Position numbers and translations under genes: made by a program. The notes beneath the pieces were generated by a model. That model was not told where the DNA came from. It worked only from the letters and a program-made list of their open reading frames with translations, and ran no database searches. Below are positions 3,001 to 51,900 of a stretch of 64,000 nucleotides of DNA, piece after piece. The stretch comes from Hypoxylon rubiginosum (lineage: Eukaryota > Ascomycota > Sordariomycetes > Xylariales > Hypoxylaceae), in assembly GCA_902806565.1 (NCBI GenBank), contig CADCXA010000065.1, forward strand, positions 372,001 through 436,000. The letters run 5' to 3'. How positions within the stretch are numbered: the stretch's first letter is position 1; every line of letters begins with the position of its first letter.

Positions 3001-3549
3001 GTAAGCCTTGGTCCTTGTTCATCTGAAGATTGTTAGCCGGTCTAGTCTGTATCACGCCAGCCCCGTTATTGAATGCGCGCGTACCTGCAATAGCCATTGC
3101 ATGCCTGATTCCTTGGCCCTCGGGTTCTTCCCAACCATGGCAGTATTGCGCACGAATCTCTCGGCTTCCACGGGCACTTGACTATACATGGTCGCCATCG
3201 CCTGTATGGCCAATTGTCTGAACTTGTCCTTCTGATCGCCCATCTTGTCGACGATGAGGGGTAGGGTTTGTTTTGCCTCCCTGGAGAGGTACTTGGGCTC
3301 TTGTAGCGACATGCGCGTCAAGAGGTGGTTCAATGTGGTGAAGCCAGCATTCACGAGGGCCGAGTGTTGCGAGCTGGAAGCAAGCCGAAGGGCTTCGAAG
3401 AGAGGTGCGACACACGGATCGGGTACGCTGTAATGTTTAATGGCGGACTTGACAGACGTGATTTGCTGGATTTTCGCGTCGACCGAGGCATCTTTTCTGA
3501 GGATTGCCAGCAAGCCGGCAACTTGCTCCTCAGTGAGCATTTCGGCCAT
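65..3549 (-). CDS. stu1: Stu1/CLASP-family microtubule-associated protein
   Basis: Four exons on the minus strand: 3549-3085, 3022-2904, 2847-1945 and 1892-65. The introns are 52-62 nt, each with GT..AG ends, and all phases join cleanly to give 1104 residues. The first exon (MAEMLTEEQVAGLL...) and the second form an N-terminal HEAT/TOG-type helical repeat. Residues about 280-495 match the CLASP N-terminal domain (helical array ending ...GVREKMRSTYWAY). Residues about 500-850 are Ser/Pro/Lys-rich and basic, with a Pro-Ala run (near 1050-1100) typical of the microtubule-binding linker. The last 230 residues form another helical array. The family binds plus ends and promotes spindle-microtubule rescue and stability; that role is inferred from homology. 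Length agrees with filamentous-fungal Stu1. The stop is at 65-67, so the gene is complete at the window edge. Confidence 0.93.
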
Positions 3550-4486
3550 GATCGCTCAGACGAATCGAGGATCTGGCAACGGGTCGTAAGATCTCTGCAG
3601 TATTTGCCAATTCGTCTATGCCAAGTTGTCTTGTGTATGCTCAAAATCGGATATGGAGGGGTCGGGGTGGTCTGGCTATCGCGGTTGGGCAAAGAGTGAT
3701 ATACCGGCTGACTTGGATCCAGAAAAGTTGAAAATGTTTAGGAACCTGGTGTTTTGCGACAGTGTTTCAACAGTCTTATTCTAGAAGTGCCAGTGCCAAT
3801 GCCGGTACTAGTCAACAAGTTTGCGATTGCAAGGACGAGGACGAAGACGAGGGAGATTTTTGTATGCGATATGGTACGGGTATTGGTAATGTTACGAGAA
3901 TGACGAGAATGACTTGGAAGATGATTTCTCCTGTGTTGTTGTCATTTGAGTACGAAGTAATTGGTAGCTTGTTGATGCGGGAAAAGATTACCTGCACCAC
4001 GACAACGGCGGGTTCGGGGTTCTCTAGTGCTCTCCACGCAGTCTACGGTACTTCTGTGGGGGCTCGCAGAGCACTAGCAGAGCACTAACATAGTAGTACA
4101 CACATCGCTAGAATCGCCAAAAGAATAGCTGCAATGAATCCCATTCGTTGCTTTAACCAACAGGGGCAGGGGCTAAGGATCCACCCAACTGCATCGCACC
4201 AAACTTGCCCCGCGGCAGGGCGACGGGGGAGCGTAGGAGGGGCATACGTAAGGGCATATAGCATACATAATAAGCAGCAAGTAAACATCATCTCACCATC
4301 TCAGCCGTCTCTTCCTCACCTCACGTCACAGCCGAATCCACAGGTATCACGACCACATAAATATATAGTGTAACTCCAGCCAACTCGAAATCATATAAAA
4401 GTCGTCAAACATTCGACACACACTGTAACTCCAGCTAATTCACTACAAATTCACTTCTAATCATCCTCTAAAACATCATCCCTCCC
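3550..4486. promoter_or_regulatory. Divergent intergenic region, Stu1 / BSP peptidase
   Basis: This non-coding stretch holds both promoters. A CT/CA-rich tract (about 4285-4485), typical of fungal 5' leaders, precedes the + strand gene. The phrase TGTAACTCCAGC occurs twice, near 4369 and 4423, flanking a TATAAAAG at about 4394. No reading frame here looks protein-like. Confidence 0.4.
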
Positions 4487-16963: not shown

Positions 16964-19900
16964 ATGGCCGACTTCGACAGAAATGTACTGGAATTCTACC
17001 AGCTATCTACGCCGTACCCCTCAGAATGGCCCGCAGAGAAGAACGATAAGAGCGACGAATCGGACAGCGAACAGGAGCAGAAGAAGCAAAAGATCAACCG
17101 CAGAAAGTCACGATACCAGGCACTTGAACGAGCCGTCAGCAACCGGGCTAGCATAGTCCAGGGATCCGAGAAGTCAGCTAATGGTGTGAGCAACTTGGTC
17201 CAGAAAGACGAACCCGACCCGTTAGGTACATCGGATAGCGTTGTGAGATCACTGAGGCAGTTGGGAGTACAAGTCCAAGATGATATCCGTTTACGTACGT
17301 TTCATAGAACCAATTAATTTTGCATGCTATATCCAAGCTTACCAATGCGCTCTCCAGGGAACCGCTTCCTCTTGTCCTCCACTAGCTTCTCGCCTGCCCT
17401 GTTCCTATCTCAGATGCATGCGACCGCCGATACCGAGTCCCTACTAAGCGGTCTCGATGTTCTATCTAGATCTATCGATCAAAAGTCCGAATCCCTAAAG
17501 GTCCTTGTCGAATCGCATTTCGAGAGGTTCGTACGGGCCAAAGCTACCATAGACAATGTCTACAAAGAGATGAAATACCGAGGAGCCGAACCTCCATCCT
17601 CGTCTCGCGCTCGCGCACACTCGCGACATGCTAGCAAGAGCAGTTTCAGAAACAGCAGTGGTGGCGCCGCTCTTGGAACCAACCCATTAGCGTCACCTCT
17701 CGCCAACGATAGTAGGAAGAAGAACGCGCTTATCAAAGAGAGTGACTACGGAGTGATGGGTATCAAAACACCTCTATTAGACGTGGCTGCTAAAGCCGAA
17801 GACGTCTGGGGCCCAGCACTTGGTGGTCGGGAGAAAGAGGAGAACCTGAAGACCGTATCGACTTCTCTTGACCGATATAAGGAATATATCGAGGCAAGCT
17901 CTAATATTGCCGATAGTATTAAGCGCAAGGACTATGAGGCATTGGTGGACGAGTACGTGCGTGCTCGGAGATTCGCGGACGAGACGCGTAGACTCGTTGA
18001 AGATTTAGGCTCAACTCCACCGAGCGAGACTCAGACGTACCAGATTCTACTTGCAGCTAGAATGTGGTACGACGTGGAAGAGCAAATCCAGCTTTTTAAA
18101 CGCGACGTGTGGAGAAAACTCACCTCGCTTCATACCGTATCGAAGGCGGAGGCCATGGCTGGACAGCCGCAGGACCAGCACATGGAACTAATTGGATTAT
18201 TGCTAGAACTTGGCGTGGATGACAATCCGATCTGGGTTTGGCTCTTGAGCCGATATGATTATCTCAAGGGAAAGATCTCGTCGACAGGCGAACGCGCAAA
18301 AGTCGAGATCGAAGTGCTCAGACGGCGTCTAGCGAGCGGTGAAAAACCAGCACCCCAAATGATGGCCACACATCTCCGAAACCTCGGCCGGCAGTCGGTT
18401 GAGAGTAAGGTCAATGGGCTGGATTCACCCGATGTTATCGAATTATGGGAGAAGATGCTCTCCTTCCTATCGAGTCTCTTATCTGCACAAGGTATTCTCG
18501 GGGAGGTCGTAGAATTTTGGCAAACGGTTGAGGGGTTCATCGATGGAAAGGCGCAAAAGTCATTACCAACAGGTTATAATGGCGAGTCTCGCGACCACCA
18601 TCGACTTTCGCAGCAGGGCACTGTAGATCTACAGAAAGGCACTACAGAGCTTGTTGATATGCTCCGTGCACACGTTTTCGAGTTCTTTGCCGGCGCACCT
18701 CCCGAAGATATCTCACTTCTTTTCTCCCCCTTGCCGCCTTCTCCTGGGACGCCGTCAGCAGGGTTGACACCCACGCGAGACCCTCGTTTCAATTTTGATG
18801 CGAATAACCTCCCTCCGCCATCGCCTAGGAAAGGGGAGACGTGGGAGAAATTTGCATTCTGGCCACCCACCTCCAATTCGGTCAGCGGTGTCCACTACTT
18901 GTCTAAGATGCTTACGTTGGTCGGTTCTGGCGCATCAGAGATGGCGAGCGTGGCTCCCGTTAGCCAAGGCGACGTGAAGCAGGTAGAATTGCTGAGAAAT
19001 TTAGTTGGTGCCGCGCGTGAGAGGTGTGTTAATGCGCTATGCGCTGCTTGGAATAAGGATGCCGAGAACATTAAGTATGTCGAGGATTGGAAGCGCTCTA
19101 AGGAGATGGGAGATGTCACGCGCATGCCGACGAGCTTTGCCTCGTTCGAAGGTGCGCTGCTCTCCGGAATGCAGAAGATCCTCTATATCCCAGAGGCCAT
19201 GGCTAAGTCAGGTGCCGGGGATATTATCCCTGCGCCGCCGACGAAGTTACTACAGTCGGTAAGGAGTCAATATGTTACGACGCTCTATAAAGCTCTTAGC
19301 GGAATGGTTGAAAATGCGGAGCGCGCTGTTAAGAAAGCGGACGATGAATGGACCACCGACGTGGATATGTCTATGAGATCCGGAGACGATAGAGCATCTC
19401 TAAATGTCGGCTCAGGGACCGTCGATCCTGGTGACAGAGTAAGTTCTTCTGAAAACGATTCGAAAGATCAGGCTAATACTCAGTTTCAGAACGTTCGTAT
19501 GCTATTAACACTTGGTAACCTTCATGCGCTGCGCACTAAAGTTGTGCCCAATTTGAACGGCCAATTTGAGAACGCGTTCTCCGTAAAGCTTACCGATGAA
19601 TCCAAGACCATCAAGGATGTACTCGGCCAGATCGATGCCCGTCTATTCCAGACGTACACCCGCCCGTCGCTTGACAGCCTGCGCAAGATTATCCGCGCCG
19701 GCCTCGCCGATCCCAAGTGGGCGCCCCCCAAACCCACCGAGGTCAAGCCGTACGTCTACGAAGCCCTGCTCACGCTCGTGCTGGTGCACACGCAAGTGTC
19801 GACGACGGCGCCGAGCATGACGCACCAGGTGCTCTCGTACCTCCTGGAGCAGATCAGCCGCGAGCTGCTGGACTGCCTCAAGGCGCGGCCCAAGTTCGAC

Positions 19901-20242
19901 CTCGGGGCGCTGATGCAGGCGACGCTGGACGTCGAGTTCTTCGCGCAGACGCTGAGCCAGTACACGACGGAGCGGGCGTCGGGGATCCAGGGCGAGGTCT
20001 ACTCGATGCTCGACTCCAAGACGGACAACCAGGCGCGGGCCCGGCTGCAGGACGAGCTCCCCGGGATGCGCGAGGTGCTCAAGAAGCTTAGGGAGCAGTC
20101 CCGGAGCGAGTTCGCGTGCTTTAAGCGGCCGCGCCGCGCCGGGTCCGCGGCGCCCTCGCAGTCGCAGTCGTTGTCGCTGTCCCAGGGGCAGGGGCAGGCG
20201 CAGGCGCCGGGGCAGACGCTCGAGCGGACCGCCACGGGCTAG
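16964..20242 (+). CDS. sec5: Exocyst complex component Sec5
   Basis: Two exons, 16964-17294 and 17358-20242, with a 63-nt intron; 1071 residues. I start at the ATG of MADFDRNVLEFYQL; the two codons before it begin with GTG, not ATG. Residues 1-110 are acidic/basic and disordered. The conserved Sec5 core starts at exon 2 (NRFLLSSTSFSPALFLSQMH) and continues with a coiled segment (SLLSGLDVLSRSIDQKSESLKVLVESHFERFVRAKATIDNVYKEMKYRG, about residues 127-175), the hallmark of the family. The rest is helical-bundle sequence. The final 35 residues are a Gln/Ser/Gly-rich tail. Sec5 belongs to the octameric exocyst that tethers secretory vesicles at hyphal tips and septa. Base composition rises to very GC-rich over the last 600 nt. 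Confidence 0.93.
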
Positions 20243-20898: not shown

Positions 20899-23800
20899 TC
20901 AATCTCCGGTGAATTGGATTTTTGGCAATTTTTCTTCTGGGAAAGAAAAGTTCAAGAGCCAAACTCGACCAGACCAGCAGCCGATTGCGATGGTCTGCGT
21001 GTGAACAGCTGAGCTATTAGGCCGGTATTCAGGAGGTAGCCAAAACAACTTCTCCTCGTTACAGATGATCCATTCCGCGCGAGAAGGTGTCACATGTCGC
21101 CTGTCATGGGCAGTCATACGAAGCCACTGAGAAAAAGTGGTAGGTGGCCGTCCGGTAGGTACTGATATGGGCAAATAATGTACCCTACCTTCGAAGTCTT
21201 TGGAAATAACCTGGCTTCCATCAGGCGAGAAAGCTATCGAAGTCGAAAGTTGGGGCGCTTGTAAGGTTTTGAAGCACTCGCCGGTTTTCGTGCTCCATAC
21301 CCACACATCAAAGCCTGAGGAAGATGCGAATAGGCTCCCATCAGGCGAAAAATTAATGTCCCTGACATAGCTTCTATGCTTTATAACCACCGTTAAGTCT
21401 GCGGCCATCATTATGTCCAATACCTTTACTGCCCCGTTGAATGAATTTATCGCTATCCGGTGGTTAGGTAAGAATGCCATTGAACAGAGGGCGTCGTCAC
21501 CCTCGAAGGTCGCTAAGCACACACTACTGGCTATGTCCCATACCTTTATTATAAGGTCGCTTGAGGCCGATGCTAGTTGACTCCCGTCGGATGAAAAGGT
21601 GACCAAATTTACAGAGTTTTTATGGCCTGTAAGGGTCTTTAAAAACGTACCCGTTGTTGTATCCCATATCTTTACTGTAGAGGAGTCGCTGTTTGAGCCC
21701 GACGCCAGCTGACTTCCGTCGGGTGAAAAGGCGACTGGACGAACATATGACCTATAGCCTGTAAAGGCTACTACACACGCGCCCGTTCTTATGTCCCACA
21801 CCTTTATTGCTTCGTTGCTTGGGAGCAGCACTAACAAGCTCCCAGTGGGCGAAAGGGTGGGCGAAAGGGTGACCGACCCCACATAGCCGTCCGTAATGGT
21901 TTGTAAAGGTTGATTTGCATGCGCCTGTTCGCATGTCCCATATCTTTGCCGTCCCATCAAGTGAGGCTGACGATAGAGAATTTCCGTCAGGTGAAAAGGC
22001 GACCGATTCAACAGACCTTCCATAGCCTGTAAGGACTGCTTCACATGCACCTGTTTCCATGTTCCATACCCTCACCGTTTTATCATACGAGCCTGACGCT
22101 AGTAAGTTCCCGTTGGGCGAAAAGGCGACTGATTCAACGCCATATTCATGGCCTGTGAGAGTTGATAGACACGCACCCGTCGTTGTATCCCATAACTTCA
22201 CTGTGAAGTCTTGCGAGCCCGACGCCAAGCGGTTCCCGTCAGGCGAAAGAGCTAATGACATGACCTCTTTGCTGTGGCCTGCGAATGTCATCACACACGC
22301 GCTCCATTGATCTTCGACAGCCGGTTTTAAAGACAGCCACGAAGGTTTCTCAACTTTAAATAATTCTCGTATTAGACTCTGGCAAGGGGTAAAAAAAAGC
22401 GCCGACGCATATACCTGCAGTGGACTGCTCTCGATCGCCAGCATGTTATGTCGGATAAACCGGTATGCGTCGTGGATAAGCTTGCCAAGTTCCGTGGGTT
22501 TTCCCTGTCCCATATAGTTAAATAATATTTCATATAAATTTCATGATTGCAGCCTACCAGAACCAGTTCCTTCAATTTCGATATTGCTAAGACCCCTTGC
22601 GGCAGACTCTCGATGATACTAAGAGCTTCGAGCCAGTGAAGATAGTGCTCTCGTAGGAATCTGTAGACTATTCCATCATCTTGGAGGCTATTGTTCTGTA
22701 TCTGCTCGTTGGGTTGGCACTCCGCCAGGTGGTTAGCCCAGTAGACACACGAGTACCGCACGGCTGCTAACGGGTCGGGATCTGGCGGCGTGATTTGGGT
22801 TGGGGGTATCCCCCAGTTATCCATGTTGTAGATATCGCGTCGAAGGATTTGAGACATAAGTTTTAGCGATCTTTGACAAATGGTGTAGTGTCCGCCTCTC
22901 ATGCCCGAAAGGAATATCGTGCTGGCTGCGTTTCGTAGCAGATAGTCTTTTGCTGACTGATGTAAGAAGTAGATGATTCCTTCCCGAAGAATAAGAAACG
23001 AGCCGCAAAGTTTGACAATTTCTTCCAGGTCTTCTAGCTTCAAGCACTCTGGTGACTCAACAAGAGGTGCTAGTTCCTGTAAAGAAAGGGGTCGGTATAC
23101 GATTGACATGATGCCTACTATTTGCTTGCAAGATTCCGCATCGTAAGACTCTGTGATCTGACCCATCATCCGATCGTAGAGAGAATCAAGTCCAGCTCGG
23201 AACTCTTCCAGTTTGGCATACGTATGGCGTAGCCTAACTTTAGGATCTGCAAGTGCTTGACACACCAAGGCTACCCAAAGGAACGTACCGCGGGAATTCG
23301 ATACTAAGTAATTTTGGACATCCTCTTGCAATCCAATGCTGTACCTTTTCTGCTCGGCTAATTGGTCAACCTTATGTTGGATGTAGCGACGAACCGCTTC
23401 CGAGATGAACAACTCATTGAGTTCAAGGCATAGTGGCCTGATATGTTCTTTACCACTGTATAGTCGTTCCTCGATGTCTAGTCGGTTACGACTAGACACG
23501 ACCCATTTAACCCGGGAGGGGACAATGATCAGATCGAGAAGTAGTGGGAGATCCTTCTCGCACTCGTCAAGGGCGTCGACGACGAAGATAGCATCCGGAA
23601 AGCTGGGGTCCTGCAACATGTTCTCGAAGATATCGTGTAACGCAACCCATGCATTTACACCCTTGAACAATGCCTCGCCTGTGCGATTGTACACTTCCTC
23701 TAAGTGCGAGATGAGTGATAGTTGTTGGTTGACAAGGAGATAGATTAGACCGCGTAATACAGCCGTCGCATTGTTCAGCCGCGGATCGGTCGCTTGGCAG

Positions 23801-24218
23801 AAGAAGAAGGACAGAAGATGAGTGGTGTCGGAGGTCTGCTTCTGGTTCTCTAACTCGTTGATGATGCCGCAAAGTAGCATGGTCTTGCCCTTACCTGGGT
23901 CGCCTCTAACCCAAAGTAAACCACTAGGGCCATCATGCCATCGTATGAAATCATCGTTCTCGAGGACCCAGCAGTATGCGTCGCGTAGGAGGCCGCCCTT
24001 TGCCTGTTCAATGCGTTTCCTGTCGTGACGAGGGTCGGTCAAGAACAAGTCAGCGAGACACTTGTTGTTTAAGGGCCCTTCAGCCTGTTAGCAACAAAGA
24101 TGGTAACCAATACCTGTTACATACCAATATTCACGTCTCCTCCGACTGTGATATTTCCAGGTCCCGAGTTTTGAATTCCTTGTCCACGGAAATTGGTTAA
24201 ATTGGCATGGCCAGCCAT
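20899..24218 (-). CDS. NACHT-WD40 NLR-like receptor with N-terminal amyloid-type motif (frameshifted)
   Basis: Exon 1 is 24218-24125, exon 2 is 24077-22558 and exon 3 is 22504-20899 (introns 47 and 53 nt). Residues 10-32 are a Gly/Gln/Asn motif (F-x-G-x-G-x-Q-N-S-G-x-G...) that ends exactly at the first intron. Then comes a fungal STAND linker (CLADLFLTDPRHDRKRIEQAKGG), Walker A GDPGKGKT at 90-97 and Walker B FVVDALDECE at about 196-204, that is, a NACHT NTPase. WD40 repeats start near residue 605: about three, then a frame change near 21885-21897, then about six more and a family-typical C-terminal extension. Removing one base there restores a frame of about 1072 codons, so the allele is either damaged or misassembled. 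The family senses non-self or pathogen cues through WD repeats and triggers cell death; that role is inferred. Confidence 0.85.
21847..21870. repeat. 12-bp tandem duplication within the WD40 region
   Basis: GGGCGAAAGGGT occurs twice in direct succession and duplicates four residues (TLSP) of one WD repeat. It lies within 40 nt of the frame change in the NLR gene. Confidence 0.85.
21885..21897 (-). other. Apparent single-base frameshift in the NLR WD40 array
   Basis: Upstream WD repeats read in one frame up to the segment encoding FTNHYG. Downstream repeats continue in the +1-shifted frame from YVGSVTLSP. The two frames overlap here and no GT..AG intron can bridge them, so an extra base is the simplest explanation. 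Confidence 0.7.
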
Positions 24219-24507
24219 TGTGCTGCTTGGGGGTTATTGGCAAGGTGCTTTTTCCAAGTCTGGAGAACTGCCCATCATAAATACGTCGGAAGCAATAGGC
24301 AGAAGCAGGCTGAGATCAGTTCAGCTCAGTGCATGTCTATATAAGCAGCCACTTAGTGCCCAACTGCAATAATACCTGAGAGGTACCTGGGTACAGATAC
24401 ATCATAGTGGCTACGGTTACTGTTAATTGGTCGATCTCAGCCTAGAATGCGTGCCTTGTGTCTGGCAAACGAACAATATATTATTTGCATGCTGTAGCTA
24501 CACCGTC
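24219..24507. promoter_or_regulatory. Spacer between the effector and NLR genes
   Basis: A 289-nt gap between the stop of the PNP gene and the start of the NLR, both on the minus strand. It must contain the NLR promoter and the 3' end of the PNP gene. TATATAAGC-like sequence occurs near 24338. Confidence 0.4.
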
Positions 24508-25572
24508 TCATTGATGCTGTCTTTGCCGTCTTTGCCCAAAGTGCATACCCCCGCCGATGGAGACACTCCCAGTGCCAGAATTTTGAACGCCTCGGCCATT
24601 GAAGACAATCGACCTGCCATTCCCGTCCGATGAACTACTAGTACTGTTTTCCGGCTCTATATAAGAAAGTAGTTCCTTGCTGCAAGCGGCCGCAGCCGCA
24701 GCCGCATAATCTTGCCAGTCGTCATTATTGTGCGAGTCTGCATAATCGGAAATGCCACGGATGACGATACAAGGGAAGTCCGTCGCCAAACCGGCAGCCT
24801 CTGTCTCGACACAGAGAATATCGCCGCAACTGCGCAGAATAGCGTTCCTCTCAGCAGCATCTTCAATGACGCTGTCGCCTGAAGCAATCAAACCGTAGTG
24901 GATTTCGGGTGTATTGGATGGGCGCGGTGACCTTTCAATAGCTTTGGACATGTCGCAATTCTCGCACGATACGTTGGCGGAGGCATGTGGATAATCCTCC
25001 TCGAACAGAACGTCTATCTCAGTAGTTGGCCGTTTGTAGTTGCCAGCGTGTCGTCCCTTTCGCAGCATGGCTGATAGAAACTTATCGACCTCGTTCCCGT
25101 GGGATTGGTGCATGGCCTTGATGGCTTCTCTAAGGAGAAGCGGCGAATGTGACAAGGAATCTTTGAGGACGACGCCGTCGGTAGTCTCTTCCCCCAGCTC
25201 ATATTGAACCAAGCCGTTGTACGATTCGTTGGGCATGCTTACGACCACGTCGCCCAAGCGGATGTCGTGGTTGGCAGTCGGTATCCCTCCTCCGATACCC
25301 ACGAGAAATCGCCACTGGATACAAGGGAAGGTTCGCTTCAGTTTCGTGAACACGGTAGCAGCTGATGCCTTTCCTCGAGTTTCGGGGAGGTATGCGAGTA
25401 CGACGTTATGTCCACTAAGCTCGCCGAAACCATAAGTGTCATCGCTCCCATTCCGAATTTTCGGGGGAATATTCGGGGGCGGGTATTTTCGGTCCAGCAT
25501 GTAACGGACGGCCTGCATCTCAAAGCTCATGGCACAAACCACAGCGACGGTATAACCATAACGAGATGGCAT
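24508..25572 (-). CDS. Purine nucleoside phosphorylase-fold effector with C-terminal amyloid-type motif
   Basis: Single exon, 354 residues. Residues 6-305 are a PNP/UDP-phosphorylase domain of the kind found in fungal NLRs: YTVAVVCAM at the start, phosphate-loop-like GIGGGIP at 92-98, SGDSVI at 231-236, nucleoside-site VETEAAG at 255-261 and IRGISDYADSH at 271-281. A Ser-rich linker (about 310-320) follows. Residues 324-346 repeat, gap-free, the 23-residue motif that opens the adjacent NLR (F-x-G-x-G-x-Q-N-S-G-x-G-...-G-G-...-G). An enzyme or toxic domain followed by an amyloid motif matching a neighbouring NLR is the known layout of fungal amyloid-controlled cell-death effectors. The expected action is hydrolysis or phosphorolysis of purine nucleosides or nucleotides on activation; that is inference. 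A distinctive detail is Thr in the E-T-E triad, where family members commonly have Met. Confidence 0.87.
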   Translation of the reverse strand: MPSRYGYTVAVVCAMSFEMQAVRYMLDRKYPPPNIPPKIRNGSDDTYGFGELSGHNVVLAYLPETRGKASAATVFTKLKRTFPCIQWRFLVGIGGGIPTANHDIRLGDVVVSMPNESYNGLVQYELGEETTDGVVLKDSLSHSPLLLREAIKAMHQSHGNEVDKFLSAMLRKGRHAGNYKRPTTEIDVLFEEDYPHASANVSCENCDMSKAIERSPRPSNTPEIHYGLIASGDSVIEDAAERNAILRSCGDILCVETEAAGLATDFPCIVIRGISDYADSHNNDDWQDYAAAAAAACSKELLSYIEPENSTSSSSDGNGRSIVFNGRGVQNSGTGSVSIGGGMHFGQRRQRQHQ

Positions 25573-48918: not shown

Positions 48919-51900
48919 ATGTCGAAGGAGCAGGGTGGCAGTATGGCGCGAAAGGCCGTGTAAGTAACTAGCGCTCAATTCAACCAGTTATCACCAATTC
49001 CTTGATAATATACTAATTTCTAAATCTACTAGGGACTCGCGCATCCCTACTCTAATCCGAAATGGCCTTTCCGAGCACAAGCGAAGCTTCTTCGTCGTGG
49101 TCGGCGACCGATCCAAAGATGCCATCGTCAAATTGCATTATATCATGTCAAATATGGACTTGCGCCAGAACAAATCCGTACTCTGGGCCTACAAAAACAA
49201 ACTCCTTGGCTTCACCAGTCATCGGAAGAAACGAGAAGCCAGGATTAAGAGCCAGATCAAGCGCGGTATCAGAGAGGCGAACTCGGAAGACCCCTTCGAA
49301 CTCTTCGTTTCGCTGCACGACGTCAGATATGTCTATTATAAGGAGACCGAAAAGATTCTAGGTAGAACGTTTGGCATGGTAAGGAGCCTATATGGATGCT
49401 GCATGCTAAGTTTATACTAATATTTATGCGTTAGTGTATCCTACAAGACTTTGAAGCCCTTACGCCGAATACCCTGGCGCGCACTATCGAGACTGTCGAA
49501 GGAGGTGGCTTGGTGGTGCTCTTATTGAAGGGAATGGACAGCCTAAGGCAACTCTATACGCTTTCTATGGATGTACATTCGCGCTACCGGACCGAAGCCC
49601 ACCACGACGTTGTCGCAAGATTCAACGAACGCTTCTTACTATCATTGGGTCGGTGCGAGTCTTGTCTTGTCATAGATGACGAGTTGAACGTTCTGCCAAT
49701 CTCAGGCGGAAGGGGGGTGAAGCCCCTACCGCCTGTGGAAGAGACAAAATCAGCCGAGGAGGTAGAACTGGAGAAAACTAAAGAGTCTCTTAGGGATACG
49801 CAACCTATAGGATCCCTCGTCCAACTTGCGCGGACGAAAGACCAAGCAGATGCTCTTATTACGTTTGTTGACGCTATATCGGCCAAGACATTGCGTAACA
49901 CGGTCTCTTTGACTGCGGCGCGTGGTCGTGGTAAATCAGCAGCGCGTAAGCATTCTACTCACTTGCCATGGAAGGAAGATGCTAAATTTTGTAGTGGGTG
50001 TTGCTATTGCGGCCGCGGTGTCTTATGGCTACAGCAATATCTTCGTCACGTCTCCTTCTCCTGAAAACCTGGGCACTCTATTCGAATTCGTATTCAAGGC
50101 ATTTGATGCTTTAGGCTACCAGGACCACACAGATTATTCCATCATTCAATCTACAAATCCCGACTTCAAGAAGGCGATTGTTAGGGTCAACATTTTCCGA
50201 AATCATCGCCAGACTATCCAATACATCCGACCGCAAGATTCCCATGTACTAGGACAAGCAGAGCTCGTAATTATTGATGAAGCGGCGGCTATTCCACTGC
50301 GTAAGTTACTACTTGCCCTTCAAGCAAATTTACATGCGCTAACGCTCGGCAGCACTGGTGCGAAAGCTCCTGGGACCGTACACAGTCTTCATGGCTTCGA
50401 CGATAAGTGGCTATGAAGGTACTGGGCGTTCCCTCTCATTAAAACTTATTAAGCAACTCAAGGAGCAGGCTGCGACTAGTGTGGCCCAGGATGGTGAATC
50501 CAGAAGTGGAAGGTCTCTAAAAGAAGTCACTCTCGCGGAGCCAATACGTTACGCAAAAGGAGACGCTGTCGAGAAGTGGCTGAATGCACTTCTTTGCTTA
50601 GATGTAACAGCATCTAGGCCCAAGAACAGTGTGTTCCCGGATCTTTCGCAATGCCAACTTTTACATGTCAACCGTGATACCCTCTTCTCTTTCCATCCAG
50701 TACCGGAAAGATTTCTACGACAAATGGTGGCTCTTTTTGTAACCAGTCACTATAAAAACACCCCAGATGATATCCAACTTATGAGCGATGCCCCGGCTCA
50801 TGAGCTTTTCGTCCTAACTTCTTCAACCATTCAAGACAGCGGCCTTCCCGAACCTTTGTGCGTCATACAGATCGCGTTCGAAGGCAGCATTAGCAAGAAA
50901 AGCGTCTTGGCCGGCCTAGACAGAGGCCAGCGGCCTGCGGGCGATTTGATCCCTTGGCTAGTCAGCCAACAGTTCCAAGACGATTTTGCTTCCCTCTCCG
51001 GTGCTCGCGTTGTACGGATAGCGACCCATCCAGACTGCGTCTCAATGGGATACGGGACAAAGGCGCTCGAGCTTCTTATCGATTACTTCGAGGGCAAATT
51101 CATAAATCTGCGAGAAGATCATGATCACGTTATGAAGGAAGCTGCCAGCAGCATAGTTACGGACGTGGTACAAACCGGAGATCGTGATCTCCTTCATGAA
51201 GAAATCAGGGTTCGAGATATTGATAAGATGCAACCTCTATTCTCCAGACTGGCTGAACGCAAGCCCGAGGACCTGGAATATGTCGGTGTTAGCTACGGTC
51301 TAACGCAGCCCCTTCACAAATTTTGGTCACGCGCCTTGTTCGTACCAGTGTACTTGGTAAGTCATTTCTACTCCTAACAGTTTATGCCTGTACCATGTCG
51401 AGGCAACTGTAGCTAATTATTTTACAGAGACAAACGGCCAATGACTTGACCGGCGAGCACACGTGCGTTATGCTCAGACCACTGAAAGAGGAACGGGAAT
51501 GGCTTGGGGCTTTCGCAACGGATTTCCATCGCCGTTTCCTTGCTCTGCTTTCTTACAAATTCCGCGATTTTCCATGTGTCCTGGCGCTGAGTATAGACCA
51601 GTCCGCCACAGCGGGCGCCGAACTAGACACGTCGAACAAGCTTCCTGAACTGACAAAGCAAGAACTGGACAGACTACTGACACCCTTCGACTGTAAAAGA
51701 TTAGAGTCGTACGCCAGGGGTGTCTTAGATCACCACGCCATCCTAGACCTTATTCCTAAACTAGCAGGTCTCTACTTTACAGGTCCTCTGAAACCAAGCA
51801 TCAAGCTCACAGGTGTGCAGCGGGCCCTACTACTAGGAATAGGCCTGCAGCGGAAAGATGTGGGGGCTATATGTACTGAGATGTCTCTGGAATCGTCCCA

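What the first reader, a model, noticed from the sequence alone, without database searches (positions are those of the whole stretch)
20899..25572. Candidate amyloid signalling pair: NACHT-WD40 receptor and PNP-fold effector sharing a 23-residue motif
Seen: residues 10-32 of the NLR and 324-346 of the adjacent PNP-fold protein align without gaps. They share F-x-G-x-G-x-Q-N-S-G-x-G, then G-G and a final G. The motif is N-terminal in the receptor and C-terminal, after a Ser-rich linker, in the enzyme. The genes are 289 nt apart on the same strand. Known: fungal NLRs pass a signal by templating amyloid folding of matching motifs in cell-death effectors (HET-s, PP and sigma classes), usually encoded by neighbouring genes. 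Inferred: this is such a pair with a nucleoside- or nucleotide-consuming effector, resembling PNP-type ATP-depleting immune effectors. Which amyloid class it belongs to (sigma-like or new) I cannot settle by eye.
Basis: partly seen in the sequence, partly recalled or inferred. Interest (0 to 1): 0.88.

Follow-up and report, generated by a model that had tools for sequence, protein, structure and literature searches.

The report
Fungal amyloid-linked immune receptor and enzyme
Two neighbouring fungal genes, an immune receptor and a nucleoside-cutting-type enzyme, share a short tag of an already described amyloid signalling family, so this looks like a new example of a known device, and the receptor copy in this assembly has a broken reading frame.

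Summary
In detail: receptor residues 10-32 and PNP residues 324-346 align without gaps (11 of 23 identical, score 75; 0 of 2000 shuffles reach it, best 44). There, peptides of one Colletotrichum pair formed fibrils and the effector-side motif behaved as a prion in Podospora. A profile from relatives' PNP tails finds this receptor's N-terminus at 37.6 bits and 32 of 120 NLR relatives; a profile from relatives' NLR motifs hits 95 of 120 PNP relatives, all near the C-terminus. Motif queries on the 48-Mb genome hit these two genes and one further, apparently frame-broken, PNP gene. Verdict: new member of a known kind, possibly decaying here; templating, substrate and cell death are inferred.

The parts
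24508..25572 (-). PNP_UDP-fold protein (354 aa, single exon), MTA/SAH-nucleosidase-like, with a low-confidence C-terminal tail
   Evidence: PF01048 E=9.9e-15; AlphaFold2 model mean pLDDT 74.5, residues 117-128, 260-263 and 314-353 below 50; Foldseek best match a putative MTA/SAH nucleosidase, E=3.7e-12, TM 0.53 by query length
24535..24603 (-). effector-side PUASM-type motif, PNP residues 324-346
   Evidence: PNP-side profile 26.9 bits, NLR-side profile 15.0 bits, both built without the window; alignment with relatives' C-termini
24125..24218 (-). NLR exon 1, residues 1-31 and the first base of codon 32; carries the receptor-side motif (residues 10-32, from 24191)
   Evidence: PNP-side profile from relatives only scores 37.6 bits; P0121 residues 1-31 match 24218-24126
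24078..24124 (-). proposed intron 1 (47 bp), directly after the motif
   Evidence: GTATGT donor, GCTAAC branch-like site, frame restored; P0121 match resumes at 24066
22558..24077 (-). NLR exon 2: NACHT/NPHP3_N ATPase region
   Evidence: PF24883 E=1.9e-30, PF05729 E=1.2e-15
22505..22557 (-). proposed intron 2 (53 bp)
   Evidence: P0121 match ends at 22558 and resumes at 22504
21752..22504 (-). NLR exon 3 as read in frame: WD40 repeats, then residues past the frame break to the stop at 21752-21754
   Evidence: three PF00400 stretches; translation
21858..21896 (-). interval in which the WD40 frame breaks
   Evidence: P0121 and P0123 match either side in different frames; a 12-bp tandem duplication lies at 21845-21871
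20899..21857 (-). further WD40 repeats and C-terminal tail in another frame
   Evidence: P0121 755-1054 matches 21858-20938, 36%; five PF00400 stretches in the frame 20901-22071

Best explanation
The locus encodes a PUASM-type amyloid signalling pair. Model: ligand binding by the WD40 propeller lets the NACHT ATPase oligomerise; the clustered N-terminal motifs fold into a beta-arch amyloid seed; the seed templates the same fold in the flexible C-terminal tail of the neighbouring PNP-fold protein; this clusters and activates the nucleosidase-like domain, which probably destroys an adenine nucleotide pool and so kills or arrests the compartment. Shown here: the motif match, its conserved position on both sides in relatives, gene adjacency, the predicted fold and the retained catalytic residues. 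Shown in print for a relative: fibril formation by both peptides of one pair and prion behaviour of the effector-side motif. Inferred: templating between these two proteins, the substrate, the outcome. In this assembly the receptor's WD40 frame is broken, so the pair may be only partly working here.
For: Motif match far beyond shuffles. Cross-finding by profiles made from relatives only (66 PNP-side and 22 NLR-side motifs picked from the 240 listed relatives by a regular expression): PNP-side profile hits the window NLR at 37.6 and PNP at 26.9 bits; NLR-side profile 41.9 and 15.0 bits (PNP E=0.0036); best other record of 4034 about 10 bits (both proteins also appear there as six-frame pieces). 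NLR-side profile hits 95 of 120 PNP relatives, all ending within 45 residues of the C-terminus; PNP-side profile hits 32 of 120 NLR relatives at E <= 0.01, 31 of them starting before residue 64. Likely pairs elsewhere: Orbilia ellipsospora TWF694_002860 (P0112) and TWF694_002859 (P0170); same species and same longest-contig length for P0005/P0127 and P0030/P0167. P0139, a Monosporascus gene model running from a PNP through the motif core into an NLR, suggests consecutive genes there. Published PUASM work, passages and one section read: PMC9815663. PNP: E18, E258, D276 retained, aligned with MTA/SAH nucleosidases.
Against: Both motifs have I or V where the published pattern ends in F; so do, with L or W, 26 of 66 PNP-side and 10 of 22 NLR-side relatives. 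25 of 120 PNP relatives are not hit by the NLR-side profile and 88 of 120 NLR relatives not by the PNP-side profile. The cognate test on four pairs is not decisive: 2 of 24 permutations, the true pairing included, reach the observed sum. P0020 shares a contig length with three NLRs that lack the motif. A motif-only protein search found nothing (13 candidates, none at E <= 10). The receptor frame is broken and the PNP differs at 18 of 122 near-invariant columns, including M257T in EMEAAG. No experiment was done on these proteins.
Confidence: 0.85

Rival explanations
1. A once-working PUASM pair that is decaying in this strain: the receptor lost its frame in the WD40 domain and the enzyme is under relaxed constraint. 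Compatible with the best explanation on identity, rival on present function.
For: Frame break in the WD40 region where two relatives leave only 7 and 4 residues; PNP departs at 18 of 122 near-invariant columns, next worst of the 52 aligned sequences 11, median 3 (the 51 relatives were picked by me from the 120 listed); the other motif-bearing PNP gene in the genome also changes frame just before its EMEAAG.
Against: The PNP frame is open over 354 codons; E18, E258 and D276 are kept; the motifs still match each other well; the WD40 sequence after the break is still open and recognisable, so the break is recent or an assembly error; many changes can also mean adaptive change.
Confidence: 0.4
2. 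The motif is sigma-like or a new class rather than PUASM.
For: Shared G-rich, Q/N-containing look; the endings here (GGD, GGG) differ from the ARD and GND said to prevail in PUASM; the published profiles could not be run.
Against: No sigma family listed in the Pfam scan at E <= 10 (weak matches may be filtered out); single 23-residue motif; relatives with GRD, GGD, GGN and GND endings align as one family with five invariant columns in the 32 sequences aligned.
Confidence: 0.05
3. Chance similarity of two glycine-rich tails.
For: Both segments are rich in G, N and S.
Against: 0 of 2000 composition-preserving shuffles; in 48 Mb only three places match a 32-residue motif query at E <= 10 (the tool scores only its best candidates).
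Confidence: 0.01

Closest known systems
PUASM pairs (NLR N-terminus / PNP_UDP C-terminus), e.g. EQB50683.1 / EQB50682.1 of Colletotrichum gloeosporioides (PMC9815663)
   Same: core motif pattern, its position in both proteins, PNP_UDP effector, NACHT-WD40 receptor, adjacent genes
   Different: I/V instead of the last F; GGD/GGG instead of the prevailing ARD/GND; receptor frame broken in this assembly; unusual T in the enzyme's EMEAAG
HET-S/NWD2 (HRAM), PP (HELLP/SBP/PNT1) and sigma (SESA/SESB/HET-eN) systems
   Same: the same logic: matching amyloid motifs on an NLR and on effectors encoded nearby (passages)
   Different: different motif families; the named effectors there are pore-forming or lipase-like (an HRAM variant also goes with PNP_UDP)
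PNP-type ATP-cleaving immune effectors (Detocs)
   Same: PNP-family enzyme used in immunity (reviews read in passages)
   Different: a bacterial three-gene defence system; ATP cleavage untested for this protein; no comparison with a Detocs sequence was run

Membership tests
PUASM | core pattern FxGxGxQxxGxG | tested here: met
   both motifs carry it
PUASM | final F of the published pattern FxGxGxQxxGxGxF | tested here: inconclusive
   I in the receptor, V in the PNP; 40 of 66 PNP-side and 12 of 22 NLR-side relatives have F, the rest L, I, V or W
PUASM | N-terminal in a NACHT or NACHT-WD40 NLR | tested here: met
   residues 10-32; NACHT and WD40 by Pfam
PUASM | C-terminal in a PNP_UDP (PF01048) protein | tested here: met
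   residues 324-346 of 354; PF01048 at 8-304
PUASM | receptor and effector genes adjacent | tested here: met
   289 nt apart, same strand
PUASM | Pezizomycotina host | tested here: inconclusive
PUASM | score with the published profiles | not testable with these tools
PUASM | amyloid and prion behaviour | not testable with these tools
   needs peptides and strains
sigma (NACHT_sigma, PF17106) | match to the Pfam sigma profile; about 40 residues of repeated submotifs | tested here: not met
   no sigma family listed at E <= 10 (HMMER filters apply); single 23-residue motif
PP | NxGxQxGxN core | tested here: not met
   core here is GxGxQxxGxG, compared by eye; PP pattern
MTA/SAH-type nucleosidase | fold and catalytic acid residues | tested here: met
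   Foldseek E=3.7e-12 on a predicted model; E18, E258, D276 aligned; which E. coli residues are catalytic is recalled, with Glu12Gln and Asp197Asn mutant titles as support; all NCBIfam matches are below cut-off
ATP nucleosidase immune effector | cleaves ATP | not testable with these tools
   needs an enzyme assay; T at position 257 occurs in none of the 116 of 120 relatives that could be read there

The most novel reading that the evidence does not exclude
In this genome one receptor motif is matched by two PNP tails, the neighbour and a second gene on another contig (C30), so a single PUASM receptor may once have fired two separately encoded nucleosidases; and the neighbour, with its changed EMEAAG, may have shifted to another substrate or to a regulatory, non-catalytic role.
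Probability: 0.1. Interest if true: 0.45.

Novelty: new member of a known kind. Interest (0 to 1): 0.27.

Why it matters
It adds a further PUASM pair, from a fungus whose closest named relatives in the lists are Hypoxylon and Daldinia, and the relatives' lists show the motif on many PNP proteins (95 of 120 by the NLR-side profile). The pair is compact and its parts are separable, so it is a handy case for two open questions: whether PUASM seeds across from receptor to effector (the 2022 paper left the co-aggregation study for later) and whether the fungal enzyme consumes ATP. The apparent decay of the receptor and of the second effector would illustrate turnover of such units.

Tried and rejected
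Sigma, PP and a wholly new class were considered and set aside. An intron was considered for the WD40 frame change: five GT-AG pairs of fitting length were listed, but each would remove stretches that match the relatives, which leave only 7 (P0121) and 4 (P0123) residues there. A motif-only protein search gave nothing. The NLR beside the second PNP on C30 was tested as its partner: its upstream reading frame matches that PNP's tail no better than shuffles (304 of 2000 reach the score); it resembles the window PNP's tail weakly (22 of 2000) and the window receptor's motif somewhat (1 of 2000), so no second pair is claimed. Two further PNP-like genes, on C3 and C32, show no such tail in the frames read; the C53 matches look like an ordinary metabolic phosphorylase, as recalled. 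Of the 101 NPHP3_N matches in the genome, 30 came as loci of about 3.5 kb and were scanned by pattern together with 6 other loci: only loci of the window's own pair had the motif, plus one unconvincing hit in L007. The remaining 71 matches were covered only by the whole-genome peptide searches, which would miss strongly diverged motifs. The PADLOC scan failed. PMC12258605 was read in passages and not used.
Full report
Observation. The PNP-fold gene runs from 25572 to 24508 on the minus strand (354 aa, one exon). The NLR starts at 24218, 289 nt further on, and needs two short introns (24124-24078 and 22557-22505); laying the Daldinia relative P0121 on the DNA agrees with these exons. The 23-residue match (receptor 10-32, PNP 324-346) has 11 identities and score 75; shuffled termini reach at most 44 in 2000 trials, and no other 23-residue window pair of the two proteins beats it.

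What it is. PMC9815663 (outline, passages and section 39 read) describes PUASM, pattern FxGxGxQxxGxGxF, found in N-termini of NACHT and NACHT-WD40 NLRs and in C-termini of PNP_UDP proteins encoded next door; its Table 1 gives 33 NLRs with the motif and 11 motif-bearing genomic neighbours. Both peptides of one Colletotrichum pair gave fibrils and ThT signal, and the effector-side motif, fused behind GFP, formed infectious foci in Podospora; fusions with the motif in front of GFP or RFP did not. PMC12261475 (passages) lists PUASM 1-2 beside HRAM, sigma and PP. A search for the word PUASM returned 11 papers, of which these two are relevant by title.

Relatives. Of the 120 best PNP relatives listed (6151 matched), 66 carry the full pattern at the C-terminus, 27 a looser variant by pattern and 27 neither (8 of these 27 look like variants by eye). 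The profile built only from 22 NLR-side motifs hits 95 of the 120, all within 45 residues of the C-terminus. Because the query included the motif, these shares are biased upward. Of the 120 NLR relatives listed (1390 matched; query residues 1-110), 22 carry the full pattern and 32 are hit by the PNP-side profile at E <= 0.01, 31 of them starting before residue 64; the exception, P0139, is a PNP-NLR chain. The profile from relatives' PNP tails scores the window receptor at 37.6 bits and the window PNP at 26.9; the profile from relatives' receptors scores them at 41.9 and 15.0; the best shuffled or unrelated record scores about 10. Three of the 120 PNP relatives carry NACHT-type or TPR domains in the same chain (P0078, P0092, P0073; Pfam column) and are not hit by either motif profile. 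That would fit the motif standing in for a direct fusion, but it is only three gene predictions.

Pairs elsewhere. Orbilia ellipsospora locus tags 002860 (PNP) and 002859 (NLR) are consecutive; P0005/P0127 (Hypomontagnella) and P0030/P0167 (Colletotrichum spaethianum) share species and longest-contig length. Against this, P0020 of Ilyonectria shares a contig length with three NLRs (P0142, P0186, P0219), none of which the PNP-side profile hits. With the window and three such pairs, the cognate sum is reached by 2 of 24 permutations, the true pairing included, so co-variation is neither shown nor refuted. The Monosporascus model P0139 joins a PNP, the motif core and an NLR in one chain, which suggests consecutive genes and an exon edge just after the motif there too.

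Own genome. Peptide and whole-protein searches of the 48.3-Mb genome find the motif in three places: this receptor, this PNP, and a second PNP gene on C30 (the composite query found the first two only). These searches score only their best candidates. The C30 PNP carries the motif after an apparent intron, but its frame changes just before EMEAAG. Its neighbour NLR carries no convincing partner motif. The genome has 101 NPHP3_N matches, several of them exon pieces, so the motif marks a very small subset of its NLRs.

Mechanism. The PNP domain is closest to MTA/SAH nucleosidases by sequence profile, by NCBIfam (all matches below cut-off) and by predicted fold. In the model 237 of 353 residues have pLDDT of 70 or more; residues 117-128, 260-263 (beside EMEAAG) and the tail 314-353 with the motif are below 50, so the model says little about the active site, and the tail is as expected for a segment that folds on templating. 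E18, E258 and D276 are kept and align with the nucleosidases; their catalytic role is recalled, with mutant titles as support. Reviews read in passages say that PNP_UDP immune effectors act on ATP (PMC12881547; PMC10197012; PMC11249213); the primary paper was not held. Templating, substrate and cell death are inferred for this pair.

Against a fully working pair. The receptor frame breaks between 21896 and 21858, with a 12-bp tandem duplication at 21845-21871; the in-frame product would be 788 aa with motif, NACHT and the first WD40 repeats. The PNP departs at 18 of 122 near-invariant columns, more than any of the 51 relatives aligned, which I picked from the 120 listed (next 11, median 3), including EMEAAG to ETEAAG, seen in none of the 116 of 120 relatives that could be read there. 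An assembly error in the receptor cannot be excluded.

Verdict. A new member of a known kind. It would interest specialists as a further case and as a possibly decaying unit, not as a new class.

Noticed in passing
G000 contig C30:680184-681468 (L065 about 3185-4470, minus strand): A second PNP-like gene with apparent introns and a C-terminal PUASM-type motif, changing frame just before its EMEAAG, divergent from a NACHT-type match at C30:682433 on.
   Followed up: partly
window 21858-21896 and 21845-21871: Frame break in the NLR's WD40 region next to a 12-bp tandem duplication; two relatives are continuous there.
   Followed up: partly
P0142, P0144, P0152, P0172, P0185, P0186, P0206, P0212, P0219, P0228 (N-termini): A different recurring short N-terminal motif, roughly G-x-A/S-x-V/I-H/Q-V-G, on related NLRs, possibly HRAM-like (recalled); not compared with any profile.
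   Followed up: no
P0139 (Monosporascus sp. GIB2 DL765_007220): A predicted chain that joins a PNP, the motif core and an NLR; either a gene-prediction merger of two neighbours or a real fusion.
   Followed up: partly
window 17318-20239, 1944-2951, 50343-51374: The window also holds ordinary conserved genes (Sec5 exocyst, CLASP, NAT10-like).
   Followed up: partly
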